64,000 bases of DNA, taken from the NCBI RefSeq assembly GCF_013409305.1, contig NZ_JACBZJ010000001.1, positions 620,001-684,000 on the forward strand. The letters are read 5' to 3'. The stretch is from Cellulomonas soli (GTDB taxonomy: Bacteria; Actinomycetota; Actinomycetes; Actinomycetales; Cellulomonadaceae). A program made the position numbers and the translations under genes. How positions within the stretch are numbered: the first letter of the stretch is position 1; every line of letters starts with the position of its first letter. Below the pieces are notes generated by a model, which saw nothing but the letters and a program-made list of their open reading frames with translations, had not been told where the DNA came from and did not search any database. Shown piece by piece: positions 27,588 through 61,362 of the stretch.

Positions 27588-27627
27588 GTCGAACGGTCCT
27601 TGCTGTGCGAGGGCGAGCGAGGGTGGG

Positions 27628-28890: not shown

Positions 28891-28951
28891 CACAGTGCTT
28901 CCTCCTTGAATCAGTGATGTACCTGCGGGACGCGCCACGAGGCGCGTCGGC

Positions 28952-45520: not shown

Positions 45521-47686
45521 TCAGCCGACGACCTCGGTGACGTGCAGCACGAGAGCCTGGGCCACCCACAGCATCGGGATCTGCAGCCCGACCGTGCCGA
45601 GCACCCGCCCGGGCAGGACGATCTCGCCGGCGCTGACCCACGGGGGCACGACCCACCCGAAGCGCGCGGTGCCGACCTCCTCACGCAGCCGTACGCGGTA
45701 CAGCCGGTCGGGGTCGAGGCCGTGCAGCCGCACGCGCTCGGGGCGGGCGTCCTCGAGCGAGGCGACCGTCGCGATCGTCCACACACCCGCCTCGCGTCCG
45801 GGCGAGACGACACCCGTGACCCGCAGGGCGGGGTCGCGCACGTCGGCGTGCACCGCCGTGCCGTGGTGCAGCACGGGGCGCAGCTCGCGGTAGAGCGCGG
45901 CGAACCGCTGCAGCGTCGCGGTCTCCTCCTCCGTGCACGCGAGCACGTCCCACTCCAGGCCCGCGGAGCCCATGAGGGCCGTGGCCAGGCGGTACGACAG
46001 GTCGACGGTCCGCCCCGAGCTGTGCGCCTGCTCCGGGCCGACGTGCGCACCGACGAGCTCGGGCGGCAGCAGCAGGCCGGTCCATCGCTGGATGTCCTGC
46101 CGCTCGACGGCGTCGTTGGAGTCGCTGGCCCAGACCCGGTCGGTGACCTGCAGGATGCCCAGGTCGGTGCGCGCACCGCCCGAGGAGCAGGACTCGATCT
46201 CCAGCCCGGGGTGGGTCGCCTTGAGCTCGGCGATCAGCCGGTACGCGGCGAGGGTCTGCTCGTGCACCCCCGGTCGGCCGCCGTGCCGGGCGTCGACGAG
46301 GTCGCGGTTGTGGTCCCACTTGATGAAGTCGATGCCGAGCCGCTCGACGAGCGCGGCGATGGCGTCCCGCACGTGGGCGTAGGCCTCGGGGCGCGCCAGG
46401 TCCAGCACCCACTGCGTCCGCCAGGACAGGCCCTCGCGGGCGGGCACGTGCGCGGGGTCGTGCAGCAGCCAGTCGGGGTGCGCCCGGGCCAGGTCGGAGT
46501 CGAGGCACACCATCTCCGGCTCGAACCACAGCCCGAACTGCATGCCGAGCTCCTGCACCCGGTCGGCGAGCGGCTCGAGCCCGTCGGGCCAGACGCCGGT
46601 GTCCACGGTCCAGTCGCCGAGCCCGCGGGTGTCGTCGCGGCGGGCCGGGAACCAGCCGTCGTCGAGCACGAACCGCTCGACGCCGATGTGCGCGGCACGT
46701 TCGGCGAGCCGCAGCACGGTCGCGGGGTCGTGGTCGAAGTAGACCGCCTCCCACGTGTTGAGCACGAGCGGGCGGACGGTGCGCGGGTGCTGCGGCCGCG
46801 AGCGCAGGTACGCGTGGAACCGGGCGCTGATCCCGTCGAGCCCGGCGTCGCTCCACGCGAAGAATCCTGTGGGCGTGGCGTACGCCTGACCGGGGGCCAG
46901 CCGCACCTCGCCGGGGCGCAGCAGCTCGCCGACGCCGAGCAGCGTCGGCTGCTCGGGGAGCCGGTCGGTGCGGTAGGTCGCGTCGCCGCTCCAGCCGAGG
47001 TGCGCGGCCCACAGCTCGCCGTCACGGTCGCGGGGGTCGGCGGCGGACAGCGCCAGCAGCCACGGGTGGTCGTGCCCGGCCCGCCCGCGCCGGGTCTGCC
47101 GGACCACGGGTCCGCGCGGCAGCGGGCTCGTGGCGGGCACCTTCTCGCGGGCCCACCGGCCGGAGAACGTCGTGCAGCGGTCGGCGTGCGTGGGCACGGG
47201 CAGCGTCGTCTCGAGCCAGTGCACGCCGACGTCCTGGGTACCGTCGTTGGCAAGCTCGTGGCCGAGCGTCAGCAGTCCCCCGGGCTCGAGCCGCAGCCGC
47301 GTGGTGAGCGTCAGCCCGGCGGCCTGCGCGACGACCTCGACCGCGGTCGCACCGAGCTCGGGGCCCTCGAGCGTGGCTGCCGTTGTCGACCAGTCGACGA
47401 CCAGGGGCGTCCCGTCGCGCTCGAGGAGCAGGCCCGGGCGACCGACCCAGCCGTCGGTCTCCTGCGGGAGCAGGCTCGGCTGCCACGCGGCGTCGAGCGT
47501 CGCGGGGGGCGTCTGACGGGCGACGGCGTCGGCGAGCGCAGCGAGGTCGGCCTCGTTCACCTCGCCGAGGTCCGCACCCCAGTGCAGCACGGCGGGCAGA
47601 CCGGGGACGGTCAGGTCGAGGAGCACGGCGACGCCGTCGCGGCGCAGCAGGATCCGGTCGGCGGGAAGGGCAGGTCGCGAGGTCAT
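45521..47686 (-). CDS. GH36 alpha-galactosidase
   Basis: 721-residue cytoplasmic enzyme (no signal peptide) releasing alpha-galactose from oligosaccharides such as raffinose or galactomannan fragments. N-terminal beta-supersandwich, then a TIM barrel with LNTWEAVYFDHD, RFVLDDGWF, LWFEPEMV, nucleophile Asp458 in FIKWDHNRD, ESCSSGGARTDLG, and acid/base Asp522 in WASDSNDA; C-terminal beta domain. It starts 41 bp after the ROK gene (47728-49038) on the same strand, so is probably its operon partner, and converges with the LacI-like sensor. Confidence 0.95.
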   Translation of the reverse strand: MTSRPALPADRILLRRDGVAVLLDLTVPGLPAVLHWGADLGEVNEADLAALADAVARQTPPATLDAAWQPSLLPQETDGWVGRPGLLLERDGTPLVVDWSTTAATLEGPELGATAVEVVAQAAGLTLTTRLRLEPGGLLTLGHELANDGTQDVGVHWLETTLPVPTHADRCTTFSGRWAREKVPATSPLPRGPVVRQTRRGRAGHDHPWLLALSAADPRDRDGELWAAHLGWSGDATYRTDRLPEQPTLLGVGELLRPGEVRLAPGQAYATPTGFFAWSDAGLDGISARFHAYLRSRPQHPRTVRPLVLNTWEAVYFDHDPATVLRLAERAAHIGVERFVLDDGWFPARRDDTRGLGDWTVDTGVWPDGLEPLADRVQELGMQFGLWFEPEMVCLDSDLARAHPDWLLHDPAHVPAREGLSWRTQWVLDLARPEAYAHVRDAIAALVERLGIDFIKWDHNRDLVDARHGGRPGVHEQTLAAYRLIAELKATHPGLEIESCSSGGARTDLGILQVTDRVWASDSNDAVERQDIQRWTGLLLPPELVGAHVGPEQAHSSGRTVDLSYRLATALMGSAGLEWDVLACTEEETATLQRFAALYRELRPVLHHGTAVHADVRDPALRVTGVVSPGREAGVWTIATVASLEDARPERVRLHGLDPDRLYRVRLREEVGTARFGWVVPPWVSAGEIVLPGRVLGTVGLQIPMLWVAQALVLHVTEVVG

Positions 47687-47727
47687 GCGAGGTCCGTTCG
47701 GTGGGAGCGTGCAGGTGCGGGGCGAGC

Positions 47728-49038
47728 TCAGACGAGGGCGGGCAGGACCTCCCCTGCGCTCTCGCGCGCAGCAGGGCGGCCGAGCGGCGAGCGCAGGACG
47801 ACGAGCGCCCCACCGACGGCCGCGGCGGCACCCACGTCGGTCGACAGCCGCACGCGCACGGGACGCAGCAGCCGAGCCAGGGCACCGCGTTCGACGGCCC
47901 GCTGCGCGAGGTCGACGTAGAGCGGGCCGGCGGTGGCGAACGCCGGCCCGGCCAGGACCACCGTGTCGAGGTCGAAGAGGTTCATGAGGGTCACCGCCGC
48001 CGTGCCGAGATGTCGCGCAGAGTCTTCCAGCAGGTGGCGCGCGTCCTGGTCACCGCGCGCCGCGGCCCGGGCGACGCGTTCGAAGTCGGCGAGCACGTCG
48101 TCGGCGTCGCCGCTCATGCGCAGCCGATCGCGCAGCCCCGGATCGGCGCCCGCCCGGGCGACCACGGCCGAGGGACCGGCCAGGGACTCGGTGCACCCGG
48201 CGTTGCCGCACGAGCACGCCGGTCCGCGCGGGTCGAGCGGGACGTGCCCGATCTCGACCGGGTTGGCCGTCCTGCCGCGGTACACCTCGGACCCGACGAC
48301 CACGCCGCCGCCGATGCCGCTGGCCATGTAGAGCACGCCGAAGGTGTCCACGTCGAGCGAGCCGACCCACTGCTCCCCCACGGCGGCGGCGGTCGCGTCG
48401 TTCTCGAGCAGCACCGGCATCCCGAGCAGGTCGGCGAGCGTGGCGGTGAGCGGGAAGTCCTGCCAGGCCGGGGTCGGCTGGGGCGTGAGGATGACGCCGC
48501 GCTCGCGGTCCTGCGGCCCGTGGGTGACCAGGCCGACGCCGAGCACACGCGCGCGCGGGACGGCCGCGGAGGCGAGCAGGTCCTCGACGTGATCGGCGAG
48601 CGTGCGCAGGGTCTCCCCCGGTGCACCGCGCCCGACACCGCGCAGGCTGGTGGCCGCCACCCGGCGCCCGGCGAAGTCGGTGACGACGATCGCGCTGGTG
48701 CACCGGTCGAGCTGGACGCCGACGGCGTAGAGCGCCGTCCGGTCGAGCTCGAGCAGCCGCCGGGGCGTGCCGCCGCGGGAGCGTGCCCGCCCGACCTCGT
48801 GCACGAGGCCTTCGGCGATGAGGTCGCGGACGACGTTGGTGATCGTGGCGGCGGTGAAGCCCGACCGGCTGGCCAGCTCGACGCGGCTGATGGTGCCCGC
48901 CGTGCGGATCAGGTCGAGCACGAGGGCACCGGTGACGGGCCGGGAGGGCTGACCCACCGGCGTCACGGCCGGGACGGCCCGCACGTTCGGCACGGGCGGC
49001 GCCGGGGTGCTCGGTCGGTGCGGCAGACGGCTGGACAT
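47728..49038 (-). CDS. ROK-family transcriptional regulator
   Basis: 436 residues. Winged helix at about residues 48-75 (ISRVELASRSGFTAATITNVVRDLI) after a Pro-rich 35-residue N-terminal tail, then the ROK domain with LLENDATAAAVGEQW, EIGHVPLDPRG and the intact zinc motif ACSCGNAGC. GAGAGGACC lies upstream of ATG 49038. It is upstream of the GH36 gene and divergent from the nine-gene transporter/mannosidase operon; the AT-rich palindrome between them (49134-49161) is its likely operator. Confidence 0.92.
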   Translation of the reverse strand: MSSRLPHRPSTPAPPVPNVRAVPAVTPVGQPSRPVTGALVLDLIRTAGTISRVELASRSGFTAATITNVVRDLIAEGLVHEVGRARSRGGTPRRLLELDRTALYAVGVQLDRCTSAIVVTDFAGRRVAATSLRGVGRGAPGETLRTLADHVEDLLASAAVPRARVLGVGLVTHGPQDRERGVILTPQPTPAWQDFPLTATLADLLGMPVLLENDATAAAVGEQWVGSLDVDTFGVLYMASGIGGGVVVGSEVYRGRTANPVEIGHVPLDPRGPACSCGNAGCTESLAGPSAVVARAGADPGLRDRLRMSGDADDVLADFERVARAAARGDQDARHLLEDSARHLGTAAVTLMNLFDLDTVVLAGPAFATAGPLYVDLAQRAVERGALARLLRPVRVRLSTDVGAAAAVGGALVVLRSPLGRPAARESAGEVLPALV

Positions 49039-49133
49039 GCGTAGGTCCTCTCCTCGGGCCCTCTCGGGACGCAGCCGCGCGCGGGGCGCAGGTCACGGTC
49101 CGGACACGGTCGTCCACGAACTTCACCCGATAA

Positions 49134-49164
49134 CTTGACGGACTAAATTTAGCAGAGCAAGAAT
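49134..49164 (+). promoter_or_regulatory. promoter/operator of the mannan-type operon
   Basis: CTTG-N5-CTAAATTTAG-N5-CAAG is a symmetrical dyad (49134-49161). It overlaps a promoter: -35 TTGACG (49135-49140) and -10-like AAGAAT (49159-49164) 18 bp apart. The stretch is strikingly AT-rich for this genome. AT-rich centred palindromes are typical of ROK operators. Confidence 0.7.
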
Positions 49165-49246
49165 CGGGTCCGCCCTCCCGCGGCCGCGGCGACGGGCACC
49201 GTCGACGTCGACCGCCACCCCGGCCGACGTGGGGAAAGGACCGAGG

Positions 49247-50947
49247 ATGTTCCTGAGGACACGGCCAGGCAGGTATCGCACCGGCGGCGCACTCGTCGCA
49301 GGGATCGTCACGTCCACGCTGCTGCTCGCCGGCTGCACGGGCGGCAGCAGCAAGGACACGTCCACCTCGGACGCGTCCGGCGCGACGATCACCGTCTTCA
49401 ACGGCTCGACCGGCACCATCACCGAGAACTTCAACCCGTTCAGCACCACGGCGCTGCAGCCGACGCTCGGTGTGATCTTCGAGCCGCTCTACTGGTACAA
49501 CCTCGCCTCGGACGCCGACCCCACGCCCCTGCTGGCGACCGGCTACGAGTGGAACGCCGACGGCACGCAGCTGACGATCCACACCCGCGAGGGCGTCACG
49601 TGGAGCGACGGCGAGCCGTTCAGCGCCGCCGACGTCGCCTTCACGTTCAACCTGGTGGCCGACACGCCCGCGCTCAACACGACCGGTCTCGCCGCGACCG
49701 CCGAGGCCACCGACGCGAGCACCGTCGTCCTGACGTTCGCCGAGCCGTCCTTCATGCAGGAGCCGAACGTGCTCGGCAACCGCGCGATCGTGCCCGAGCA
49801 CATCTGGAAGGACGTCGCCGACCCGGTCACCGAGATCAACTCCGAGCCCGTGGGCACCGGGGCGTTCAGCGTCGAGTCCTTCTCGTCGCAGAGCTACATG
49901 CTGCAGGCCAACCCGGGCTACTGGGGCGGCGAGCCCGCCGTCAAGCACGTGCGCTACGTCGCGCTCGACTCCGCCGACGCCGCGAGCGCCGCGCTCGTCG
50001 CCGGTGACGTGGACTGGATGAGCGCCTTCCTGCCCGGCCTCGACGACATCATCTCGACGAACCCGGACCTCGGGTACGTCAACACCCCTGCACTGACCGC
50101 CTCGATCTTCACCTGCTCCGACGCCGCCGCCGGCTGCGCCGGCCCGCAGACCGACCCCGCGGTGCGCCAGGCCATCTACTACGCGCTCAACCGTGACCAG
50201 CTCAACAAGCTGGCCGGCGGCGGGTTCGCCGGCACCGCCTCCCCGACACTTCTGCTGCCCGAGCGCGACGCGGACTGGATCGCCGACCCCGACGACGTCG
50301 AGGCACCGGCGTCCGCCGACACCGAGAAGGCAGCCGACCTGCTCGACGCCGCCGGCTGGGTCGAGGGCAGCGACGGCATCCGCACCAAGGACGGCGAGCG
50401 CCTGTCGATGACCATCCAGACGGTGACCGGCTGGAGCGACTTCATCTCGCTCAACGACGCCATGACCCAGCAGCTGGCCGAGGTCGGCATCGAGCTCAAG
50501 CCGAGCCAGGTCTCCTGGAACGAGTGGAACGACGCCCAGCTGTCCGGCAAGTTCCAGCTCTCGCTCGACTCGATCGGTCTGGGCGCCTCGTCCAACCCGT
50601 TCTTCACGTACGACAAGTGGTATAACTCCGCGAACACCGTGCCCGTCGGCGAGAACGCCATCGCCGGCAACGCCAGCCGGTTCTCCGACCCCGCGGTGGA
50701 CGCCGCACTGGCCGTCGCCCGCTCGACCGACGACGAGGCCGTCCAGGCCGAGCAGTACGCGATCATCCAGGACGTCATCACCGAGCAGCTGCCGTACATC
50801 CCGATCTACGTGAACTCGATGCTCACCGAGTTCAACAACAGCCGCGCCACCGGGTGGCCGACCGACGAGGACAAGTACGCCATGCCCGCCTCGTGGAAGG
50901 CGTGGGACAACGGCATCGTCCTCAAGACGATCAAGCCGACCAACTGA
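49247..50947 (+). CDS. family-5 (Dpp/Opp-type) substrate-binding lipoprotein
   Basis: 566 residues. Signal peptide with lipobox LLLAGC, Cys30. Family-5 hallmarks: ENFNPFSTTALQPTLGVIFEPLYWYN, WSDGEPFSAADVAFTFNLV, VPEHIWKDVADPV, GTGAFSVESFSSQSYMLQANPGYWGG, VRQAIYYALNRDQLNKLA. This fold binds peptides, but in Thermotoga and other bacteria close relatives bind cello-, manno- or other beta-oligosaccharides; the downstream glycosidases argue for sugars. ATG 49247 is chosen; GGGGAAAGGA lies just upstream, and GTG 49229 is an alternative. First gene of the operon. Confidence 0.92.
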   Translation: MFLRTRPGRYRTGGALVAGIVTSTLLLAGCTGGSSKDTSTSDASGATITVFNGSTGTITENFNPFSTTALQPTLGVIFEPLYWYNLASDADPTPLLATGYEWNADGTQLTIHTREGVTWSDGEPFSAADVAFTFNLVADTPALNTTGLAATAEATDASTVVLTFAEPSFMQEPNVLGNRAIVPEHIWKDVADPVTEINSEPVGTGAFSVESFSSQSYMLQANPGYWGGEPAVKHVRYVALDSADAASAALVAGDVDWMSAFLPGLDDIISTNPDLGYVNTPALTASIFTCSDAAAGCAGPQTDPAVRQAIYYALNRDQLNKLAGGGFAGTASPTLLLPERDADWIADPDDVEAPASADTEKAADLLDAAGWVEGSDGIRTKDGERLSMTIQTVTGWSDFISLNDAMTQQLAEVGIELKPSQVSWNEWNDAQLSGKFQLSLDSIGLGASSNPFFTYDKWYNSANTVPVGENAIAGNASRFSDPAVDAALAVARSTDDEAVQAEQYAIIQDVITEQLPYIPIYVNSMLTEFNNSRATGWPTDEDKYAMPASWKAWDNGIVLKTIKPTN

Positions 50948-50966
50948 CCGACCGGGACCGTGTCCC

Positions 50967-51005
50967 GCCCGGGTGACGGCTCCTGCACGGGGCCGTCACC
51001 CGGGC
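50967..51005 (+). terminator. intercistronic hairpin after the binding-protein gene
   Basis: Perfect 14-bp stem (GCCCGGGTGACGGC with GCCGTCACCCGGGC) and 11-base loop in the 121-bp gap between the binding protein and the first permease. It likely reduces read-through or protects the upstream message, as with the chvE hairpin. Confidence 0.65.
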
Positions 51006-51068
51006 CCACCCCGGCGCTGCCCGGCGCGCCGCCGGGACCCGCCACCGACCGACCTGGAGGCACCCGCC

Positions 51069-52061
51069 GTGCGGTACATCCTGCAGAAGCTCGGGTTCTA
51101 CGCCGTGGCCCTCTGGGCCGCGCTGACCCTCAACTTCTTCATCCCCCGGCTCATGCCGGGCAACCCCGTCGACATCATGGTCTCGAAGCTCGCCACCAAG
51201 GGACCGGTCACCGCGGACACCCGCGCAGCGATCGCCGCGATGCTCGGCACCGACACGCAGGCGCCGCTGTGGCAGCAGTACGTCGACTACCTGCACGCCC
51301 TGGTCAGCGGTGACCTGGGCACCTCGGTCGCGTACTTCCCGGCCAGCGTGAACGAGATCATCGGCCAGACCCTGCCGTGGACCATCGGCCTGATCGGCAT
51401 CTCCACCGTCATCTCGTTCCTGGTGGGCGTCGGTCTGGGCACGTTCGCCGGCTGGAAGCGCGGGTCGTGGGTCGACAACCTCATCCCGTTCACCACGATG
51501 CTGCAGTCCGTGCCGTACTTCTGGCTCGCGCTGCTGCTGCTGTTCTTCTTCGGCAGCGTGTGGCCGGTCTTCCCGCTCAACGGCGGGTACGACGTCTACA
51601 CGTTCGCCGGGCCCGAGCTGAGCTGGGGGTTCATCTCCTCGGTGCTCTACCACGGCGCCCTGCCCGCGCTCACGATCGTCATCTCCTCGATCGGCGGCTG
51701 GATGCTCGGGATGCGCAACATGATGGTCTCGACGCTGTCCGAGGACTACATCCTCACCGCCGAGGCCAAGGGACTGCGCCCCGGTCGTGTGCGCGCCGCC
51801 TACGCCTCCCGCAACGCCGTGCTCCCCTCGATCGCGGGCTTCGCGATCTCGCTCGGCTTCGTCGTGGCCGGGTCGATCGTCACCGAGGCGGTGTTCAGCT
51901 ACCCGGGCATCGGGTCGGCGCTGCTCATGGCGGTCAACTCCAACGACTACTCGCTCATGCAGGGCATCTTCCTGGTCATCACCCTGGCGGTGCTCGGAGC
52001 CAACCTGCTCGTCGACCTGCTGTACGGCGTCATCGACCCCCGTACGCGGGCCCGTTCCTAG
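51069..52061 (+). CDS. Dpp-type ABC permease 1
   Basis: 330 residues, six hydrophobic segments, DppB-like. N-terminus ILQKLGFYAVALWAALTLNFFIPRLMPGNPVD is a family signature; a roughly 60-residue external region follows. The EAA-type loop is DYILTAEAKGLRPGRVRAAYASRNAVLP, and FSYPGIGSALLMAV is a further signature. GTG 51069 has GGAGG eight bases upstream. Confidence 0.93.
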   Translation: MRYILQKLGFYAVALWAALTLNFFIPRLMPGNPVDIMVSKLATKGPVTADTRAAIAAMLGTDTQAPLWQQYVDYLHALVSGDLGTSVAYFPASVNEIIGQTLPWTIGLIGISTVISFLVGVGLGTFAGWKRGSWVDNLIPFTTMLQSVPYFWLALLLLFFFGSVWPVFPLNGGYDVYTFAGPELSWGFISSVLYHGALPALTIVISSIGGWMLGMRNMMVSTLSEDYILTAEAKGLRPGRVRAAYASRNAVLPSIAGFAISLGFVVAGSIVTEAVFSYPGIGSALLMAVNSNDYSLMQGIFLVITLAVLGANLLVDLLYGVIDPRTRARS

Positions 52062-52073
52062 GAGGGGCACCCC

Positions 52074-53042
52074 ATGGCCATCACCACCCTGGACCCGCAC
52101 CTGGCCGCCGACGAGGCCGCCGAGACCACCACGCCCGGCCCGCGCAGGCGCGCCCGGCTGCCGCGCACCGCCAAGCTCGTCACGGGCGTGAGCCTGGCCG
52201 GCACGATCGCGCTGTTCGGCATCCTCGGCCCGTTCGTCGTCGGCGACCCCTCGACGGTCAACGACATCGGCCTGGCGCCACCGTCCGCCGACTTCCTGCT
52301 CGGCACCACCCAGACCGGTCAGGACGTGCTCGCCCAGCTCGCCTACGCCACCCGCGGCTCGCTCACCATCGGGATCGTGGTCGGCGTGCTGACCCTGGTC
52401 CTGTCCGCGTTCTTCGGCGTCGTCGGCGCGTTCGCCGGCGGCTGGCTGGACGAGGCGTTCTCCCTGTTCAGCAACGTCATGCTGGTGATCCCCGGGCTGC
52501 CGCTCGTCATCGTCATCTCCTCCTACGTGCCCGAGAAGAGCATCTGGCTGGTCGCCGTCGTGCTCGCCCTGACCGGCTGGGCCGGGTCGGCGCGCGTGCT
52601 GCGCGGGTTCACGCTCAGCCTGCGCGGACGCGACTACGTCCTGGCCGCCCGCGTCAGCGGCGAACGGTCGTGGCGCATCCTCGCGGTCGAGATCCTGCCG
52701 AACCTCATCCCGCTGCTGGCCTCGCAGGTCGTGTTCGCGATCATCTTCGCGATCCTCGGCGAGGCCGGGCTGTCGTTCCTCGGCCTGGGCGCCTCCGGCT
52801 CGTTCACCTGGGGAACCATGCTCTTCTACGCCCAGAACGGCCTCGCGCTGCGGCTGGGCGCCTGGTGGTGGTTCGTCCCGCCGGGCCTGCTGCTCGCCCT
52901 GTTCGGGGCGGCGCTGTCCCTCATCAACTTCTCCATCGACGAGGTCATCAACCCCAAGCTGCGCGCCCAGACCCGGGCCGACCGCAAGAAGTGGTCGATG
53001 TCCCGCGAGCAGCTCAAGGACGCTGCGGAGGTCATCGTATGA
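52074..53042 (+). CDS. Dpp-type ABC permease 2
   Basis: 322 residues, DppC-like. About 35 cytoplasmic residues, then six hydrophobic segments; LLGTTQTGQDVLAQLAYATRGSLTIGIV is the usual external/entry motif, and DYVLAARVSGERSWRILAVEILPNLIP is the ATPase-contacting loop. AGGAGGGG precedes ATG 52074; the gene starts 12 bp after permease 1 and overlaps the next gene (ATGA). Confidence 0.93.
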   Translation: MAITTLDPHLAADEAAETTTPGPRRRARLPRTAKLVTGVSLAGTIALFGILGPFVVGDPSTVNDIGLAPPSADFLLGTTQTGQDVLAQLAYATRGSLTIGIVVGVLTLVLSAFFGVVGAFAGGWLDEAFSLFSNVMLVIPGLPLVIVISSYVPEKSIWLVAVVLALTGWAGSARVLRGFTLSLRGRDYVLAARVSGERSWRILAVEILPNLIPLLASQVVFAIIFAILGEAGLSFLGLGASGSFTWGTMLFYAQNGLALRLGAWWWFVPPGLLLALFGAALSLINFSIDEVINPKLRAQTRADRKKWSMSREQLKDAAEVIV

Positions 53043-53976
53043 GCGCCCCGACCACGACGGCCCCGGCCGCCGCGACCCTCAGCCGCCACCCCGTGCTGAC
53101 GATCGACGACCTCAGCGTCGACTACCTCGTCGACCCGCCCGTGCACGCCGTGGACCACGTGAGCCTCGAGCTGCGCCGCGGGGAGATCCTCGGCCTGGCC
53201 GGCGAGTCCGGCTGCGGCAAGTCGACCCTGGCGTACGGCATCACCCGGCTGCTCAAGCCGCCGGCCACCATCACGAGCGGCTCGGCGACGTTCCACTCCC
53301 GCGAGGGCTACGACGTCGACCTGTCGACGCTCAGCGGTGACGACCTGCGCGCGTTCCGCTGGGACAAGGTCGCCATGGTGTTCCAGGGGGCGATGAACTC
53401 CCTCAACCCGGTTCTGCGCATCCAGGTGCAGCTCGAGGACGTGCTCACCACGCACCGCCCCGAGATGCCCAAGGCGCAGCGGCGCACCCGGTGCGCGGAG
53501 CTGCTGATGCGCGTCGGCGTCGACCCGAGCCGGTTGCGGGCCTATCCGCACGAGCTGTCCGGGGGCATGCGCCAACGCGTCATGATCGCCATGGCGCTGG
53601 CCCTCGAGCCGCAGATCCTCATCATGGACGAGCCGACGACCGCCCTCGACGTGGTCGTGCAGCGCGAGATCCTGCAGGAGATCACCCGGCTGCGCGCCGA
53701 GCTCGGCTTCGCGGTCGTCTTCATCACGCACGACCTGCCGCTGCTGCTCGAGATCAGCGACCGGATCGCCGTGATGCGCGCCGGTCGGATCGTCGAGCTG
53801 GCCGACGCCGTGACGCTCTACACCGACCCGCAGCACGCGTACACGCGGCGGCTGCTGTCCTCGTTCCCGAGCCTGACCGGCGCCCGCGGCGACTTCATCC
53901 GGACGGGCGTCGACGCCTCGTCCTCCTCGGCCTTCGCGGACGAGACCACCCCGAGCGTCGACCAGGAGGCCGTGCG

Positions 53977-53980
<4 letters not shown>
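53039..53980 (+). CDS. Dpp-type ABC ATPase 1
   Basis: 313 residues, DppD-like. Walker A GESGCGKST, Q-loop MVFQGAMNSLNPVLRI, signature LSGGMRQRV, Walker B ILIMDEPTTALD, switch FITHDLPLLLE, and the family's C-terminal HAYTRRLLSSFPSL. Acts as a heterodimer with the next protein. Overlaps its neighbours by four bases on each side. Confidence 0.94.
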
Positions 53981-54791
<811 letters not shown>

Positions 54792-54795
<4 letters not shown>

Positions 54796-55469
54796 GCGGG
54801 ACGCCGTCGCCGGAACCCGTCGCGCCCGTGTCCGTGGTGTTCGCCGGCGACTCCATCACCGAGTGGGGGCGGCACGAGGACCCCGACGGCTGGGGCTCGG
54901 GGTACGTCGGCCTGCTGGCCCGCGGCCCGCTCGCGTCGACCATCCCGCCGACCAACCCGTCGACCAACCCGCCGACCAGGGTGACGAACACCGGGGTCGG
55001 CGGCGACCGGGTGCGCGACCTCGAGGCCCGCTGGGGCCACGACGTGCTCTCGCTGCAGGCCGACGTGCTCAGCCTGTACGTCGGCGTCAACGACACGTGG
55101 CGGCGCTACGACCAGGGCGAGGAGACCACGGCCGAGGAGTTCGAGGCCGTGCTGCGCCGGCTGCTGCACCCGTGGGTGCGACGCGGCACCCGGCTCGTGC
55201 TCGTCGAGCCGTTCGTCGTGCCGGTCGAACCCGCCCAGCACGCGTGGGACGAGGACCTGCGACCGAAGCAGGACGCCGTACGCCGGGTCGCCGCCGACCT
55301 GGGTGCCGCGCACGTGCCGTTGGCCGCAGCGATGACCGCCCTGGCGGCCGCGAGCGCACCGCACCTCGTCGCCGCCGACGGGGTGCACCCGACGCCGGCC
55401 GGCCACAGGCTGATCGCCGACGCCTGGTGGTCCGCCTACCGGGCGCGGTTCGCACCTTCGTCCGACTGA
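54792..55469 (+). CDS. SGNH/GDSL-family hydrolase
   Basis: 225-residue cytoplasmic esterase candidate. Block I VVFAGDSITEWG (nucleophile Ser21), block II NTGVGGDRVRDLEARW, block III YVGVNDTWRRYD, and block V ADGVHPTPAGHRLIAD with catalytic Asp and His. A Pro-Thr-Asn repeat (PPTNPSTNPPT, about residues 53-63, from 12-bp DNA repeats) interrupts the loop after block I. Translationally coupled to the ATPase gene. In this operon a role in removing O-acetyl groups from oligosaccharides is plausible. Confidence 0.88.
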
Positions 55470-55531
55470 CCCGCCGCCCCGGCCCCTTCGCTCGCCCTCC
55501 CCCGCACCACCAGCACCGCAGGAGACCTCCC

Positions 55532-58060
55532 ATGCAGACCGCGCCGCTCCCCGACGGCTGGACCGTCGCCGCCACCGCCGGGCCCGTGCCGGCCGACCTC
55601 CCGTCGGCCGTACCCGCGCAGGTGCCGGGCTGCGTGCACACCGACCTGCTCGCCGCAGGGGCGATCGCCGACCCCTATCTCGACGCGAACGAGACGGACC
55701 TGCGGTGGATGCACGACGTCGACTGGCGCTACACGCGGCTGCTCGAGCTGGCCCCGGCGGGCGCCGAGGAGCGGGTCGACCTGGTCCTCGACGGCATCGA
55801 CACCGTCGGCACCGTCCGGCTGGGCGCCGTCGAGCTGGGACGGACCGCGAACATGCACCGCTCGTACCGGTTCGACGTGCGCGCGCAGGCCGACGGCGTG
55901 GTCCGTGAGCTCACCGTCGACCTGCGCTCGGCGACGGCGTATGCCGCCGAGCTGCGTGACGTCCTCGGCGACCGGCCCTCGGCCTACCACCCGATCCCGT
56001 ACAACTTCGTGCGCAAGATGGCCTGCTCGTTCGGCTGGGACTGGGGTCCGGACCTGCGCACCGCCGGGCTGTGGAAGGACGTGCGGGTCGAGCGCTGGAG
56101 CGTCGCGCGCCTGGCGCAGGTGCGCCCGCTGGTGACCGTCGGCCCCGACGGGACGGGCCGGGTCGAGGTGCACGTCGATGTCGAGCGCTCGGGGCTGGGG
56201 GCGGACGGCGTGCTGGTCGTGGAGGTCGACGTGCTCGGCGCGCGTGCCCGTGGTCGGCTCGCTCCCGGTGCGAGCGGCACGGTCGTCACGGTCGAGGTCC
56301 CCGACGCGCCGCTGTGGTGGCCCGTCGGGTACGGCGAGCACCCGCTCGCCGACCTCACCGTCGCCCTGCACGCGGGCGAGGCCGCAACCGGGGCGACCCC
56401 GGATGTCGGCACGGCCCTGGACGCCTGGACGCGCCGGGTCGGCTTCCGCACGGTCGAGCTGGACACCTCCGACGACGAGCACGGCACCCGGTTCACGGTC
56501 GTCGTCAACGGCACGCCCGTCTTCGTCAAGGGGGCGAACTGGATCCCCGACGACCACCTCGTCACCCGACTCACCCGCGCACGGCTGGACCGCCGGCTCG
56601 ACCAGGCGCTCGACGCGCACATGAACCTGCTGCGCGTGTGGGGTGGCGGCATCTTCGAGTCCGAGGACTTCTACGCCGCGTGCGACGAGCGCGGGCTGCT
56701 CGTCTGGCAGGACTTCCTCATGGCGTGCGCGGCCTACCCCGAGGAGTCGCCGCTGTGGGAGGAGGTCGAGGCCGAGGCGCGCGAGAACGTCGTCCGGCTG
56801 ATGAGCCACCCCTCGCTCGTCCTGTGGAACGGCGGCAACGAGAACGCCTGGGGGCACGAGGACTGGGGCTGGAAGGACCGTCTCGGCGACCGCACGTGGG
56901 GCGCCCGCTACGCCGGAGAGCTCTACGGGCGGGTCGTCGCCGAGCTCGACCCGACCCGCCCGTACACCGACAACAGCCCGTTCTCCCCCCGCCGCGACCC
57001 GGCCGACGTGCACCCGAACGACCCCGACCACGGCTCGCACCACCAGTGGGAGGTGTGGAACCGCGTCGACTACACCGAGTACCGCCACGAGATCCCGCGG
57101 TTCTGCTCCGAGTTCGGCTTCCAGGGCCCGCCGACCTGGCGCACCCTGACCGACTTCGTGCACGCGAGCGACGGCGGGCCGTTGGCCGACTCCCCCGCAC
57201 CGAAGGACGACCCCGTCTTCCTGATCCACCAGAAGGCCGACGACGGCAACGGCAAGCTCGACCGCGGCATGGCCCCGCACCTGGGCGTGCCGACCGACTT
57301 CGGCGACTGGCACTGGGCCGCGCAGCTCAACCAGGCCCGTGCGGTGCAGCACGCGGTCGAGCACTACCGCTCGTGGTGGCCGCGCACGGCCGGCGCGATC
57401 GTCTGGCAGCTCAACGACTGCTGGCCGGTGACGTCCTGGGCGGCGATCGACTCGCAGGGACGACCCAAGCCGCTGTGGTTCGCCCTGCGGCACGCCTACG
57501 CCCCGCGCCTGCTCGCGGTCGTCGAGCGGGAGGGCGCCCCGGCGCTGGCGATCGTCAACGACACGGACGAACGCTGGTCCGGAACGCTGGACCTGCGCCG
57601 CGAGAGGTTCGCGGGGACGCCGCTGGCGCACGGGTCCGCGCCGGTCGAGGTGCCGGCGCGATCGGTGCACGTGCTGCCGCTCGACCCCGCGCTCGCGGTG
57701 GCCGACGACCCGACGGGCGAGGTGCTGGTCGCCGCGCTCGACGACGTCCGGGTCGTGCACACGTTCGCCGAGGACGTGGAACTCCAGCTCGACCCCGCTC
57801 CCCTCGAGGTGAAGGCGGTCACCGTGCCCGGCGGGTACCGCGTCGACGTGACGGCCCGCTCGCTCGCCACGGCCGTGTGCCTGCTGGTCGACCGTGCGGC
57901 TGCGGACGCCCGGGTCGACGACGCGCTCGTGGACCTTCCGGCCGGCGCCTCGTGGTCGTTCCACGTCACCACCGAGGCGGTGCTCGACCCCCTGGTGCTC
58001 ACCGCGGCGCCCGTGCTGCGGACCGCGAACGACCTGCGCGCCGTGGCGGTGCAGCGGTGA
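55532..58060 (+). CDS. GH2 beta-mannosidase
   Basis: 842 residues, no signal peptide. GH2 sandwich domain with features of beta-mannosidases: VDWRYTRLLEL, GRTANMHRSYRFDV, and FGWDWGPDLRTAGLWKDVRVE. TIM barrel: FVKGANWIPDD, LLRVWGGGIFESEDFY, acid/base Glu437 in LWNGGNEN, nucleophile Glu527 in RFCSEFGFQG, and AIVWQLNDCWPVTSWAAID. The FGWDWGP and WNGGNEN motifs separate it from beta-galactosidases. AGGAG lies nine bases before ATG 55532. Expected to trim mannose from the non-reducing end of imported manno-oligosaccharides. Confidence 0.93.
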   Translation: MQTAPLPDGWTVAATAGPVPADLPSAVPAQVPGCVHTDLLAAGAIADPYLDANETDLRWMHDVDWRYTRLLELAPAGAEERVDLVLDGIDTVGTVRLGAVELGRTANMHRSYRFDVRAQADGVVRELTVDLRSATAYAAELRDVLGDRPSAYHPIPYNFVRKMACSFGWDWGPDLRTAGLWKDVRVERWSVARLAQVRPLVTVGPDGTGRVEVHVDVERSGLGADGVLVVEVDVLGARARGRLAPGASGTVVTVEVPDAPLWWPVGYGEHPLADLTVALHAGEAATGATPDVGTALDAWTRRVGFRTVELDTSDDEHGTRFTVVVNGTPVFVKGANWIPDDHLVTRLTRARLDRRLDQALDAHMNLLRVWGGGIFESEDFYAACDERGLLVWQDFLMACAAYPEESPLWEEVEAEARENVVRLMSHPSLVLWNGGNENAWGHEDWGWKDRLGDRTWGARYAGELYGRVVAELDPTRPYTDNSPFSPRRDPADVHPNDPDHGSHHQWEVWNRVDYTEYRHEIPRFCSEFGFQGPPTWRTLTDFVHASDGGPLADSPAPKDDPVFLIHQKADDGNGKLDRGMAPHLGVPTDFGDWHWAAQLNQARAVQHAVEHYRSWWPRTAGAIVWQLNDCWPVTSWAAIDSQGRPKPLWFALRHAYAPRLLAVVEREGAPALAIVNDTDERWSGTLDLRRERFAGTPLAHGSAPVEVPARSVHVLPLDPALAVADDPTGEVLVAALDDVRVVHTFAEDVELQLDPAPLEVKAVTVPGGYRVDVTARSLATAVCLLVDRAAADARVDDALVDLPAGASWSFHVTTEAVLDPLVLTAAPVLRTANDLRAVAVQR

Positions 58061-59511
58061 GCGGGGTCCGACCGGCCGGGCGCCGGTTCCCCGACGGCTT
58101 CCTCTGGGGCGCAGCCACGGCCGCGTACCAGATCGAGGGCGCCGTCACGGAGGACGGGCGCGGCCCCTCGATCTGGGACACGTTCTCGCACACGCCCGGC
58201 AAGGTCGCCGGGGGCGACACCGGCGACGTGGCCGCCGACCACTACCACCGGGTCCCGCAGGACGTGGCGCTCATGGGCGACCTCGGGCTGCAGGCCTACC
58301 GGTTCTCGGTCGCCTGGCCGCGCATCCAGGCCACCGGTCGTGGCCCGGCCAACCCGCTCGGTCTGGCCTTCTACGACGACCTCGTCGACCGGCTGCTGCA
58401 GGCCGGCATCAAGCCGGTCGTCACGCTCTACCACTGGGACCTGCCGCAGGCCCTGCAGGACGCGGGCGGCTGGGCCTCGCGCGACACCGTGCACCGGTAC
58501 GTGGACTACGCGGCGATCGTCGCCGAGGCGCTGGGCGACCGGGTGCACCTGTGGACGACCTTCAACGAGCCGTGGTGCTCGGCCTACCTGGGGCACGGGT
58601 CGGGCGAGCACGCGCCCGGCATCCCCGACCCGGCGCTCGCGCTCGCCTCGGTGCACCACCTCAACCTGGCGCACGGGCTCGGCGGGCGGGCGGTGCGCGC
58701 GGTGCTCGGCGACGACGCGCCGGTGTCCGTCACCTACAACCTGCAGGTGCACCAGGCGGTCTCCGACGACCCCGCGGACCTCGCCGCCGCGCGTGCCCTC
58801 GACGTCGTCGCGAACGAGGTGTTCCTCGGGCCCGTGCTCGAGGGCGCCTACCCCGAGGAGGCGTTCGCCCGGACCGCGCGGTTCACCGACTGGTCGTTCG
58901 TGCAGGACGGCGACCTCGCCGACATCCGCATCCCGCTCGACGTGCTCGGCCTGAACTACTACAACACCTCGCGCGTCGGGGCGCGGCGCGCACCGGTCGC
59001 GGCCGACCCCGAGGCACCGTTCGTGCCGACCACCGCGATCGGCTGCGAGGACGTCGAGTGGTTCGAGCAGCCCGGCCCGCGCACCCAGATGGGCTGGAAC
59101 GTGGACCCGCAGGGCCTGACGGACCTCCTGCTCGACCTGCACCGCCGGTTCCCGGACCTGCCGGTGATGATCACCGAGAACGGCGCCGCGTTCGAGGACG
59201 TCGCCGGTCCGGGAGGCGAGGTCGTCGACACCGCACGCACCGCCTACCTGTACGACCACCTGGACGCCGTCGGTGCCGCGATGGACGCCGGGGCGGACGT
59301 CCGCGGCTACCTGCTGTGGTCCCTCATGGACAACTTCGAGTGGGCGTGGGGGTACTCGCGGCGGTTCGGCATCGTCCGCGTCGACTACGACACGCAGCGG
59401 CGCACCGTGAAGGACTCGGGCGCCTGGTACCGCGAGCTGATCCGCACCGGGCGCCTGCCCGCGGTGCCGACCGAGCCGTCGTCGCCCGACCCCCTGACCG
59501 TGGAGGCCTGA
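58057..59511 (+). CDS. GH1 beta-glucosidase
   Basis: 484 residues, no signal peptide. GH1 motifs: RRFPDGFLWGAATAAYQIEGA, YRFSVAWPRIQ, TLYHWDLPQALQD, acid/base Glu171 in TTFNEPW, nucleophile Glu374 in MITENGAAF, and SLMDNFEWAWGYSRRFGIVRVD. The GTG start overlaps the mannosidase stop. In this operon it would remove glucose, or possibly mannose, from beta-linked oligosaccharides. Confidence 0.94.
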   Translation: MSGVRPAGRRFPDGFLWGAATAAYQIEGAVTEDGRGPSIWDTFSHTPGKVAGGDTGDVAADHYHRVPQDVALMGDLGLQAYRFSVAWPRIQATGRGPANPLGLAFYDDLVDRLLQAGIKPVVTLYHWDLPQALQDAGGWASRDTVHRYVDYAAIVAEALGDRVHLWTTFNEPWCSAYLGHGSGEHAPGIPDPALALASVHHLNLAHGLGGRAVRAVLGDDAPVSVTYNLQVHQAVSDDPADLAAARALDVVANEVFLGPVLEGAYPEEAFARTARFTDWSFVQDGDLADIRIPLDVLGLNYYNTSRVGARRAPVAADPEAPFVPTTAIGCEDVEWFEQPGPRTQMGWNVDPQGLTDLLLDLHRRFPDLPVMITENGAAFEDVAGPGGEVVDTARTAYLYDHLDAVGAAMDAGADVRGYLLWSLMDNFEWAWGYSRRFGIVRVDYDTQRRTVKDSGAWYRELIRTGRLPAVPTEPSSPDPLTVEA

Positions 59512-59513
59512 CC

Positions 59514-60485
59514 GTGCCTAGCATCGACATGCCGCTCGAGGAGCTCGAGCGCTACCGCCCCGACGTGGCCGAGCCGGACGACTTCGCCGAGCTGTGGAGC
59601 ACGACGCTCGCCGAGGCCCGCGCCCTGCCCCTGGACCTGGTCGTGACCCCGGTCGCCACCGACCTGCGGCTGATCGACGTGCACGACGTGGAGTTCGCCG
59701 GGTTCGCCGGTGACCGCATCAAGGCCTGGTACCTGCGCCCGGCCGGGGTCACCGGGCCGCTGCCCGTGATCGTCGAGTACAACGGCTACGGCGGTGGCCG
59801 CGGCCTGCCGCACGAGCGCCTCGGGTTCGTCGCCGCCGGCTACGCCTACCTGTTCATGGACACCCGCGGCCAGGGCTCGACGTGGGGATCCGGCGGCAGC
59901 ACACCCGACCCGCACGGCTCCGGGCCTGCACTGCCCGGCTTCATGACGCGCGGGGTCCTCGATATCCGCGGCTACTACTACCGCCGTCTGTTCACCGACG
60001 CGGTCCGTGCCGTCGACGCGGCCCGCTCGCTCGACGGCGTCGACCCCGACCGCGTCGTGGTGACCGGCGGGTCGCAGGGCGGCGGCATCACGCTCGCGGT
60101 CGCAGGGCTCGTCGACGGCCTGGCCGGCGTCATGGCGGACGTGCCGTTCCTCGCGCACGTGCAGCGGGGCGTCGAGGTCGCACTGACCGATCCGTACGCC
60201 GAGATCGTCCGCTACCTGGCCGTGCACCGCGACCACGCCGAGCAGGTGTTCCGCACGCTCTCCTACGTCGACGGCGTCAACCACGCCCGCCGCGCGAGCG
60301 CACCGGCGCTCTTCTCGGTCGCCCTGCTCGACGCCACGTGCCCGCCGTCCACGGTGTACGCCGCCTACCGCGCCTACGCCGGGCCGAAGGAGATCGCCGT
60401 CTACCGGTTCAACGACCACGAGGGCGGTCAGGCCTACCAGCTCGCCCGCCAGCTCACCTGGCTGCGCACGACGTTGGGCCACTGA
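59514..60485 (+). CDS. CE7 acetyl xylan esterase / cephalosporin-C deacetylase-like
   Basis: 323 residues, cytoplasmic. Alpha/beta hydrolase of carbohydrate esterase family 7: PLPVIVEYNGYGGGRG, FMDTRGQGSTWGSGG, nucleophile Ser187 in VVTGGSQGGGI, the Asp in LLDATCPPSTVYAAY, and the His in RFNDHEGG. CE7 enzymes remove acetyl groups from short imported oligosaccharides inside the cell, matching its place at the end of the operon. GTG 59514 is two bases after the GH1 stop. Confidence 0.92.
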   Translation: MPSIDMPLEELERYRPDVAEPDDFAELWSTTLAEARALPLDLVVTPVATDLRLIDVHDVEFAGFAGDRIKAWYLRPAGVTGPLPVIVEYNGYGGGRGLPHERLGFVAAGYAYLFMDTRGQGSTWGSGGSTPDPHGSGPALPGFMTRGVLDIRGYYYRRLFTDAVRAVDAARSLDGVDPDRVVVTGGSQGGGITLAVAGLVDGLAGVMADVPFLAHVQRGVEVALTDPYAEIVRYLAVHRDHAEQVFRTLSYVDGVNHARRASAPALFSVALLDATCPPSTVYAAYRAYAGPKEIAVYRFNDHEGGQAYQLARQLTWLRTTLGH

Positions 60486-60539: not shown

Positions 60540-60584
60540 GTCAACCCGCATTGACACGTCGCGAGTGTCAACCTAGATTGACAT
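60540..60584 (+). promoter_or_regulatory. promoter embedded in an array of TTGAC/GTCAA dyads
   Basis: Consensus-like promoter: -35 TTGACA (60551-60556), 17-bp spacer, -10 TAGATT (60574-60579). The region alternates half-sites: GTCAA-N6-TTGACAC-N7-GTGTCAA-N6-TTGACA, so the -35 is itself one arm of a perfect TTGACAC-N7-GTGTCAA dyad (60551-60571). The expected start coincides with the HTH gene's GTG. The architecture recalls HspR/HAIR operators (7-bp arms, 7-bp gap) but the sequence differs. Confidence 0.75.
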
Positions 60585-60586
60585 CC

Positions 60587-60796
60587 GTGACCGATCAGCT
60601 CCTCACCGCCGCAGCTGGCGACGACCCTGCCGCCGGCCTGCGCGCCGTGCGCGCGCTCCGGGCGCTCGCCGACCGGCTCGAGGCGCTGCACGTCGAGCAC
60701 GCGCGATCGCGCGGCTGGTCGTGGCAGCAGGTCGCCGACGCGCTGGGCGTCTCCCGGCAGGCCGTCCACAAGCGCTACGGGAAGAGGTTCGGCTGA
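60587..60796 (+). CDS. small helix-turn-helix protein (69 aa)
   Basis: 69 residues: an N-terminal amphipathic helical part (residues 15-40, ALRADRLEALHVEHARSRG-like) and a C-terminal helix-turn-helix WSWQQVADALGVSRQAVHKRYGKRFG. It begins with GTG 60587 at the predicted transcription start (leaderless) and its stop overlaps the ATG of the Clp-N gene. Likely DNA-binding and probably autoregulatory on the dyad array directly upstream. Pairing of such a small HTH protein with a Clp-N protein recurs in actinobacteria. Confidence 0.82.
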   Translation: MTDQLLTAAAGDDPAAGLRAVRALRALADRLEALHVEHARSRGWSWQQVADALGVSRQAVHKRYGKRFG

Positions 60797-61362
60797 TGTT
60801 CGAGAAGTTCGCCACCGACGCCCGCGAGGCCGTCGTCCGCGCGCAGGAGGCCGCCCGCACGGCGGGCTCCGACCACATCGGCGCCGAGCACCTGCTCCTG
60901 GGCGCCGTGATCACCCCGGGCTCGGTCGCGGGCCGGGCGGTCGAACGGCTCGGCCTGCGGACGGGCGACGTCGTCGTCCTGGTCCGTCACCTGCCGACCG
61001 AGGTGCTCGACGCCGAGGCGCTGGCCGCCGTGGGCGTCGACCTCGACGCGGTCCGCGCCCAGGCCGAGGCGACCTTCGGCCCCGGGGCGCTCGACGGCAC
61101 GCGCACCCCGCAGCGACGCACCCACCTGCCCTTCGACGCCGCGGCGAAGAAGACCCTCGAGGTCGCCCTGCGCGAGGCCGTGCGGTTCAAGCAGCGCCGG
61201 ATCGACACCGGCCACCTGCTGTTCGCGTGCGCCCGGCTCGACGAGACACGTGCGCACGACGTGCTCGACCGCCTCGGCGTGACCCCGCAGGCCCTCCGAC
61301 AGGCCGTCGTCGCCGTCTGGGCGGACGGGGACGAGACCTCCTCCTCGCACGACTCGCACTGA
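60796..61362 (+). CDS. Clp N-terminal-domain protein without ATPase
   Basis: 188 residues made of two Clp-N repeats: FEKFATDAREAVVRAQEAARTAGSDHIGAEHLLLG at the start and PFDAAAKKTLEVALREAVRFKQRRIDTGHLLFA in the second half. No Walker motifs follow, so it has the substrate- or adaptor-binding part of ClpC/ClpA without an unfoldase. Its ATG overlaps the HTH stop (TGATG), fixing the start and coupling the pair. It could compete for Clp adaptors or hand the HTH protein to ClpCP; this is inference. Ends in a Ser/His-rich tail. Confidence 0.85.
   Translation: MFEKFATDAREAVVRAQEAARTAGSDHIGAEHLLLGAVITPGSVAGRAVERLGLRTGDVVVLVRHLPTEVLDAEALAAVGVDLDAVRAQAEATFGPGALDGTRTPQRRTHLPFDAAAKKTLEVALREAVRFKQRRIDTGHLLFACARLDETRAHDVLDRLGVTPQALRQAVVAVWADGDETSSSHDSH

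What the first reader, a model, noticed from the sequence alone, without database searches (positions are those of the whole stretch)
45521..60485. A complete intracellular system for acetylated galactoglucomannan oligosaccharides using a peptide-type importer
Seen directly: a Dpp/Opp-type importer (binding protein, two permeases, two ATPases) is translationally chained to an SGNH hydrolase, a GH2 with beta-mannosidase motifs, a GH1 and a CE7 esterase; divergent is a ROK regulator followed by a GH36 alpha-galactosidase. None of the five enzymes has a signal peptide. From family knowledge, these activities match every linkage in O-acetyl-galactoglucomannan. Use of a family-5 binding protein for beta-manno-oligosaccharides is known in Thermotoga, but this gene set with two different esterases in an actinobacterium is, to my knowledge, not described as a system.
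Basis: partly seen in the sequence, partly recalled or inferred. Interest (0 to 1): 0.72.

Follow-up and report, generated by a model that had tools for sequence, protein, structure and literature searches.

The report
Actinobacterial importer-enzyme operon for mannan oligosaccharides
A soil-type actinobacterium carries a self-regulated gene cluster that very probably imports short sugar chains from plant mannan through a peptide-type transporter and takes them apart inside the cell; the plan is known from other bacteria, but this combination of parts looks new.

Summary
The gene set is real and where stated: SBP5 importer (5 genes), SGNH esterase, GH2 beta-mannosidase, GH1 beta-glucosidase, CE7 esterase on +; ROK regulator and GH36 on -. 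Only 4 of 8 junctions overlap. The binding protein is nearest to a group of family-5 proteins that holds named mannoside and chitooligosaccharide binders, with three of four Vibrio ligand residues kept. Added here: (1) a palindrome inside the promoter spacer, exact once in the 4.26-Mb genome, so the ROK protein probably controls only this locus; (2) 47 of 64 named loci with this importer (SBP 50% identity or more) carry GH2 or a mannanase nearby, 17 neither; (3) SGNH recurs in 13 of 64 such loci, 0 of 16 distant ones; (4) a same-genus relative has a different binding protein but the same regulator and enzymes. Mannan use is well supported; acetylated galactoglucomannan as substrate, and mannan action of both esterases, are inference. 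The working plan is known (Thermotoga ManR/Mtp; two-esterase loci of Roseburia and Faecalibacterium), so a new variant. Both esterases together: 1 of 64 (Pengzhenrongella), plus the window.

The parts
45521..47686 (-). GH36 alpha-galactosidase, 721 aa, no signal peptide by eye
   Evidence: Pfam PF02065 383 bits; nearest solved 4fnq AgaB E 6e-88; KWD/SDSND motifs
47728..49038 (-). ROK-family regulator, 436 aa (repressor inferred)
   Evidence: PF00480 plus MarR-like winged HTH; NagC/Mlc-like below curated cut-offs
49135..49164 (+). promoter-like site of the SBP operon, TTGACG-18-AAGAAT
   Evidence: only hit in 48950-49300, mean 0.0 in shuffles; same layout in group A relatives
49142..49153 (.). 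putative ROK operator ACTAAATTTAGC in the promoter spacer
   Evidence: RCTAAATTTAGY exact only here in 4,257,813 bp; kept in L031, L033, L068, L069 and, one half altered, in L032
49247..50947 (+). family-5 solute-binding lipoprotein, mannoside type (inferred)
   Evidence: PF00496; lipobox; nearest solved chains
50967..51005 (+). hairpin between SBP and PermB, 14-bp perfect arms; probably sets SBP above permease level (inferred)
   Evidence: gap folds at -75.5 kcal/mol, z -3.65; arms 50967-50980 and 50992-51005; a perfect-arm hairpin also in L031 but in 0 of the other 11 relatives tested
51069..52061 (+). permease B (Opp/Dpp type); the longer ORF starts at 50973
   Evidence: PF00528; start by GGAGG and profile alignment
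52074..53042 (+). permease C (Opp/Dpp type)
   Evidence: PF00528
53039..53980 (+). ATPase D
   Evidence: PF00005, oligo_HPY below cut-off
53977..54795 (+). ATPase F
   Evidence: PF00005, oligo_HPY
54792..55469 (+). SGNH esterase, 225 aa, Axe2-like
   Evidence: PF13472; 4oap E 2e-24 by sequence, 1e-44 by profile; S21, G71, N100, D196, H199 invariant in 13 sequences
55532..58060 (+). GH2 beta-mannosidase, 842 aa
   Evidence: 5n6u beta-mannosidase E 2e-125; both catalytic Glu invariant in 31 of 31
58057..59511 (+). GH1 beta-glucosidase, 484 aa
   Evidence: TIGR03356 587 bits, cut-off 478.5; 7bbs, 1gnx
59514..60485 (+). CE7 acetylesterase, 323 aa
   Evidence: PF05448 356 bits; 1vlq E 2e-110

Best explanation
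A ROK-controlled divergent locus for uptake and cytoplasmic breakdown of beta-mannan oligosaccharides. A secreted mannanase made elsewhere in the genome cuts glucomannan or galactomannan; the lipid-anchored family-5 binding protein delivers the oligosaccharides to an Opp/Dpp-type importer; [quoted passage not shown] Without inducer the ROK protein sits on a palindrome in the promoter spacer and blocks the importer operon, and probably its own divergent gene; imported sugar releases it. Shown: gene set, families, motifs, promoter-like site and palindrome, conservation. Inferred: ligand, inducer, repression, esterase targets, order of steps.
For: Families and nearest solved enzymes. SBP: the 14 chains at or below 1e-40 to its profile include the named 'Mannoside' and 'Chitin Oligosaccharide' binders (most others are named peptide-binding by their depositors, and that they bind sugars is recalled); AppA, a named oligopeptide binder, scores 2e-26 and DppA 5e-14. 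Three of four ligand residues of the Vibrio chitooligosaccharide binder (Trp363, Asp365, Trp513; PMC10667598, passage) align to W396, D398, W550, invariant in 12 of 12 aligned sequences. GH2 within about 10 kb in 42 of 64 loci with SBP of at least 50% identity against 2 of 16 distant ones; GH36 19 of 64 against 0 of 16; GH2 or mannanase 47 of 64. Mannanase-like gene near the SBP in 10 of the 64. Own mannanase: 1bqc E 3e-122. Single exact operator in the genome. SGNH: of 150 family genomes 43 have a match, and the 3 best lie at this locus.
Against: 17 of 64 importer loci have neither GH2 nor a recognised mannanase in the stretch held; all are Kribbella (9) or Actinoplanes (8), so importer and substrate are not strictly tied. 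GH1 and CE7 are occasional (8 and 4 of 64). CE7 homologues are in 134 of 150 family genomes. Both esterases are nearest to enzymes named for xylan or cephalosporin. The fourth Vibrio ligand residue (Phe437) is not kept. No copy of the operator within 2 mismatches lies near the mannanase genes of this genome. Mannanase enrichment in importer genomes, 10 of 13 against 53 of 137, p 0.009, is one of 12 tests, 4 of which fell below 0.05; no correction for kinship. No ligand, expression or activity data.
Confidence: 0.82

Rival explanations
1. Same import system, but the real substrate is non-acetylated mannobiose, galactomannan or glucomannan oligosaccharides; SGNH and CE7 are general cytoplasmic deacetylases that also serve acetylated xylo-oligosaccharides or other esters.
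For: CE7 homologues in 134 of 150 family genomes; best solved esterase relatives are named for xylan or cephalosporin; 63 of 64 importer loci lack at least one of the two esterases.
Against: SGNH recurs in 13 of 64 importer loci against 0 of 16 distant loci, sits between ATPase and GH2 in Cellulomonadaceae and Actinomyces alike, and CE7 follows a mannanase gene beside the same importer in Paractinoplanes L097.
Confidence: 0.3
2. The importer serves mixed beta-1,4-disaccharides (cellobiose and mannobiose alike), and the locus is a general beta-glycan scavenger.
For: GH1 beta-glucosidase in the operon; the Thermotoga relative is recalled to bind cellobiose and mannobiose; W553 of the mannoside group is Trp in the 1vr5 chain too.
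Against: GH1 is in only 8 of 64 loci while GH2 is in 42 of 64; the secreted enzymes found near the importer in relatives are mannanases (which looked only for mannanases).
Confidence: 0.25
3. Peptide or nickel importer next to unrelated sugar genes.
For: NCBIfam names are peptide/nickel, below their curated cut-offs; most depositor names of the nearest solved chains say peptide.
Against: The group holds named sugar binders and the peptide binders AppA and DppA score far lower; operon conserved with GH2.
Confidence: 0.02
4. Locus for the N-glycan core (Man-beta-1,4-GlcNAc), as proposed for a GH5_18 locus in Cutibacterium.
For: A beta-mannosidase with sugar ABC transporter genes also occurs there (PMC6160142, passages).
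Against: Pfam found no GH38, GH20 or GH18 among the locus genes, but GH36, GH1 and esterases.
Confidence: 0.03

Closest known systems
Thermotoga maritima ManR regulon with MtpEFGKL importer (PMC3750489, passages)
   Same: ROK regulator plus mannan-induced ABC importer plus mannan and mannoside hydrolases; solved chains recalled as its binding proteins (TM1223/TM1226) are among the nearest to this SBP
   Different: Phylum; this locus joins GH36, GH1 and two esterases to the importer in one divergent unit; ManR binding motif not compared
Roseburia intestinalis mannan loci and Faecalibacterium prausnitzii FpMULL (PMC6385246, PMC8262883, passages)
   Same: ABC import of beta-manno-oligosaccharides, cytoplasmic GH36, two complementary acetylesterases, beta-glucosidase and/or GH1
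   Different: CE2+CE17 instead of Axe2-like SGNH+CE7; GH130/GH113 instead of GH2; LacI instead of ROK; their binding proteins were not compared here by sequence
Pengzhenrongella frigida HLT2-17 locus (L067/L031)
   Same: Whole gene set including both esterases, GH1 and operator
   Different: GH36 stands at the end of the + operon instead of behind ROK
Acetyl xylan esterase 4oap and its other PDB entries (recalled as Geobacillus Axe2)
   Same: Nearest solved relative of the SGNH enzyme over nearly its whole length
   Different: Target of the present enzyme untested

Membership tests
Opp/Dpp-type importer with sugar-type family-5 binding protein | SBP_bac_5, two BPD_transp_1 permeases, two ATPases in one operon | tested here: met
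Opp/Dpp-type importer with sugar-type family-5 binding protein | sequence nearer to oligosaccharide binders than to peptide binders | tested here: met
   sugar-binding nature of most of the nearest chains is recalled, two are named so
Opp/Dpp-type importer with sugar-type family-5 binding protein | binds mannosides | not testable with these tools
   three of four ligand residues kept, no binding data
Thermotoga ManR/Mtp-like mannoside system | ROK regulator beside the importer genes | tested here: met
Thermotoga ManR/Mtp-like mannoside system | ManR operator | not tested
   motif not retrieved
Roseburia/Faecalibacterium-type mannan locus | CE2 and CE17 esterases | tested here: not met
   SGNH profile hits 4oap at 1e-44 and 6hfz (recalled as the Roseburia CE17) only at 7e-6; CE2 not compared by name; the other esterase is CE7
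Roseburia/Faecalibacterium-type mannan locus | GH130 and GH113 in the locus | tested here: not met
   Pfam of locus genes
GH2 beta-mannosidase | nearest solved enzymes are beta-mannosidases, two catalytic Glu | tested here: met
GH2 beta-mannosidase | activity | not testable with these tools
   none
CE7 acetylesterase | AXE1 domain, RGQG, GxSQG and HE motifs (recalled) | tested here: met
SGNH, Axe2-like | SGNH blocks and nearest solved relative | tested here: met
GH36 alpha-galactosidase | Melibiase domain, catalytic Asp motifs | tested here: met

The most novel reading that the evidence does not exclude
This is one member of an undescribed class of beta-mannoside importers spread through many actinobacterial genera, a clade of family-5 binding proteins marked by a second tryptophan (W553), around which exchangeable enzyme and regulator cassettes are plugged. 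Its Axe2-like SGNH enzymes would be a third type of mannan-oligosaccharide acetylesterase beside CE2 and CE17, and the sister importer (group B), which comes with a GH42 beta-galactosidase in 5 of 6 loci and with a GH5_8-type or strong GH26 gene in 1 of 6 genomes, would serve a differently decorated mannan, for example one with beta-galactosyl side chains.
Probability: 0.3. Interest if true: 0.55.

Novelty: new variant of a known kind. Interest (0 to 1): 0.4.

Why it matters
Acetylated galactoglucomannan is the main softwood hemicellulose (recalled), and the papers I could search did not show how actinobacteria import and finish it. The locus gives a compact set of genes with one local operator for direct tests, a candidate new mannan esterase type, and a natural importer difference between same-genus strains with the same enzymes, which makes transporter specificity testable. 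It also warns that peptide or nickel names given to such importers may be wrong.

Tried and rejected
Peptide or nickel import rejected on sequence. N-glycan core use rejected for lack of GH38/GH20/GH18 in the locus. A wider ROK regulon including the mannanases was looked for and not found: one exact operator; two sites with 2 mismatches, against 10 matches of the control pattern. Group-B importers do not go with mannanases (1 of 6 genomes with GH5_8-type or strong GH26). Permease, ATPase and GH36 trees do not reject groups A and B as one clade (p 0.54, 0.48, 0.12), so the swap of the whole importer is not settled. A+C as a clade is rejected for SBP (p 0.012), AtpD (p 0.011), ROK, GH36 and GH2, so group C is not one natural group. 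Groups were named after seeing identities, which weakens these tests; trees were quick ones of 31 chosen rows at most (29 ROK, 21 GH36). The downstream HTH/Clp_N gene was rejected as a part. The hairpin behind the SBP gene was found late and is shared, by a perfect-arm test, with 1 of 12 relatives only. Literature searches; in the listings seen none was about an actinobacterial locus of this kind (lists were capped); a 2003 paper on the Thermobifida fusca beta-mannosidase gene is recalled as possibly relevant and was not seen.
Full report
WHAT IS THERE. The window is bases 620001-684000 of a single-contig 4,257,813-bp genome. Starts and junctions were read from the sequence and families assigned with Pfam and NCBIfam. 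The + strand operon is SBP5, PermB, PermC, AtpD, AtpF, SGNH, GH2, GH1, CE7 (49247-60485); ROK and GH36 run divergently (49038 down to 45521). Four of eight junctions overlap by 4 nt. PermB most likely starts at 51069, which leaves a 121-nt gap after the SBP gene holding a hairpin with 14-bp perfect arms (50967-51005; z -3.65 against shuffles); of 12 relatives tested only L031 has a perfect-arm hairpin there. Such hairpins often keep binding-protein mRNA more abundant than permease mRNA (recalled). The SBP has a lipobox; the five enzymes show no signal peptide by eye. Catalytic motifs of all five enzymes are present.

WHAT THE PARTS LOOK LIKE. GH2 matches solved beta-mannosidases (5n6u E 2e-125), GH1 solved beta-glucosidases and the TIGR03356 model over its cut-off, CE7 1vlq, SGNH the acetyl xylan esterase 4oap, GH36 AgaB. 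The binding protein matches 12 distinct chains at 2.4e-48 or better, among them 1zty 'Chitin Oligosaccharide Binding Protein' and 4pfu 'Mannoside ABC transport system, sugar-binding protein'; most of the others carry peptide names from their depositors and are recalled as Vibrio chitooligosaccharide and Thermotoga sugar binders. AppA comes at 2e-26, DppA at 5e-14. With a 12-sequence profile the 14 chains at or below 1e-40 are that same group plus 4jsd and 2o7i. Vibrio ligand residues Trp363, Asp365 and Trp513 (PMC10667598, passage) align to W396, D398 and W550, invariant in 12 of 12; Phe437 aligns to the variable I472 (the chain numbering is two higher than the paper's, which I read as an offset). 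In a 31-sequence set, W550 and D398 are invariant, W396 is Tyr in 3 of 14 outer sequences, and W553 is Trp in all 26 of groups A, C and O and Leu/Phe/Met in the 5 of group B. The 1vr5 chain also has Trp at that place.

REGULATION. Between ROK and SBP lies one promoter-like site, TTGACG-18-AAGAAT, with the palindrome ACTAAATTTAGC in the spacer. The same layout is in L031, L033, L068 and L069, and with one altered half-site in L032/L127. Group-B relatives with a similar ROK (60-73%) have related AT-rich motifs, while most relatives with a different ROK (42-47%) have another motif of the form ACTTT-N-AAAGT (read by eye). RCTAAATTTAGY occurs exactly once in the genome; two more sites have 2 mismatches, against 10 matches of the control pattern. 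So the ROK protein most likely acts on this locus alone. Repression, and control of its own gene, are inferred.

HOW WIDESPREAD. In 150 family genomes, 13 (window included) have an SBP of 66% identity or more. I fetched the other 12 loci and 8 further ones at 43-46%. In 12 of 12 GH2, GH36 and ROK matches are nearby (GH2 cut by the end of the stretch in L040); in 6 of the 8 others GH2, GH36 and the importer genes are present, ROK in 5 of those 6. A scan of one genome per species for 84,980 species found 112 relatives and kept 80 loci (cap). Of these, 64 have SBP of at least 50% identity, in Cellulomonas, Arthrobacter, Occultella, Agromyces, Actinomyces, Kribbella, Actinoplanes, Curtobacterium, Bifidobacterium and others. 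Of the 64: GH2 42, GH36 19, ROK 48, SGNH 13, GH1 8, CE7 4. Of the 16 distant loci: GH2 2, ROK 3, the other four 0; several of these are short contigs. A mannanase-like gene lies near the SBP in 10 of 64: GH5_8-type in L089, L091, L096, L121, L123, L125, GH5 with a mannanase domain in L097, GH26-like in L087, L093, L119. GH2 or mannanase: 47 of 64. The 17 with neither are all Kribbella (9) or Actinoplanes (8), which counts against a strict importer-substrate tie.

ESTERASES. SGNH: 43 of 150 family genomes have a match; the three best (100, 79, 67%) are at this locus in G000, G047 and G124, the rest at most 56%. In Actinomyces SGNH sits at the same place, between ATPase and GH2; in Arthrobacter it lies upstream on the other strand. 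CE7: a match in 134 of 150 genomes, the three with lowest E-value at this locus in G000, G047 and G071; in Paractinoplanes L097 a CE7 gene follows the mannanase next to the importer. Both esterases together: 1 of 64, plus the window. So SGNH is a recurrent partner and CE7 an occasional recruit; that either acts on acetylated mannan is inferred from neighbourhood. By sequence the SGNH is far nearer to 4oap than to 6hfz, which I recall as the Roseburia CE17.

ENZYMES OUTSIDE. This genome has a GH5 protein with a signal-like N-terminus, a mannanase domain (1bqc E 3e-122) and a cellulose-binding domain (L052), a partial GH26-like match, and a weak phosphomannose isomerase match. The 13 importer genomes carry a GH5_8-type or strong GH26 gene (E under 1e-30, my choice) in 10 of 13 against 53 of 137 of the others, p 0.009; GH5_8 alone 8 of 13 against 46 of 137, p 0.047; strong GH26 alone 3 of 13 against 24 of 137, p 0.43; group-B importer genomes 1 of 6. 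Twelve tests were made, 4 below 0.05, none corrected for kinship or number.

MOSAIC HISTORY. G093, of the window's genus, has GH36 74%, ROK 73%, GH2 71% and GH1 66% like the window, but an SBP of 44%, importer genes of 65-69% and a GH42 gene. In trees its GH36 (98), GH2 (99) and, less firmly, ROK (92) fall among group A, its SBP in group B (100). Holding A and B together is rejected for SBP (p 0.005) and for GH2 (p 0.0002, where the other four B loci stand apart), not for PermB, AtpD or GH36; for ROK they are one clade at 100. So the binding protein, and probably the whole importer, differs in history from regulator and GH36. Groups were named after seeing identities. GH42 is in 5 of 6 group-B loci (not L046) and in 1 of the other 14 fetched (L040).

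KNOWN OR NEW. [quoted passage not shown] Roseburia and Faecalibacterium import manno-oligosaccharides, then remove acetyls with two esterases and galactose with GH36 (PMC6385246, PMC8262883, passages). The present locus works like these but does not meet the Roseburia-type features CE2/CE17, GH130/GH113 and LacI. Ten literature searches listed no paper on such an actinobacterial locus; the library holds only openly licensed papers, so this is weak evidence of absence.

VERDICT. Observation right, mannan interpretation well supported (0.82), acetylated galactoglucomannan and the role of both esterases plausible but untested, novelty smaller than claimed. New variant of a known kind.

Noticed in passing
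L044 (G093:C3:66500-86000): Same-genus relative keeps window-like GH36, ROK, GH2 and GH1 but has a different binding protein (44%) and a GH42 gene: a natural importer difference.
   Followed up: partly
L043, L044, L045, L047, L048 (between AtpF and GH2) and L040 3119-5149: GH42 beta-galactosidase gene in 5 of 6 group-B loci and in L040; might match mannans with beta-galactosyl side chains (recalled idea).
   Followed up: partly
L145, L146 (Nocardiopsis, Thermobifida): A distant family-5 importer (SBP 28-29%) with a GH2 beta-mannosidase match and a GH5_8-type mannanase: perhaps a second use of peptide-type importers for mannan.
   Followed up: no
L049 (G008:C1:737500-757000): SBP of 46% identity next to a GH20 gene, suggesting a chitooligosaccharide branch of the same importer group.
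   Followed up: no
window 60551-61362: TTGACA/TGTCAA repeats over a promoter-like site in front of an HTH/Clp_N-domain gene directly downstream of the operon.
   Followed up: no
window 9187-15483 and 21908-29977: Two further likely sugar loci: ABC transporter genes with their own ROK regulator, and a GH127/MGH1-like pair near SBP, permease and LacI regulator genes.
   Followed up: no
window 15910-21726: 1938-aa protein with alpha-amylase, X25 and pullulanase domains: probably a fused amylopullulanase.
   Followed up: no
G035:C2:1046-6777: An SGNH homologue (55%) lies about 600 bases from one GH26 match and about 4.3 kb from another, a further hint that these esterases go with mannan.
   Followed up: no
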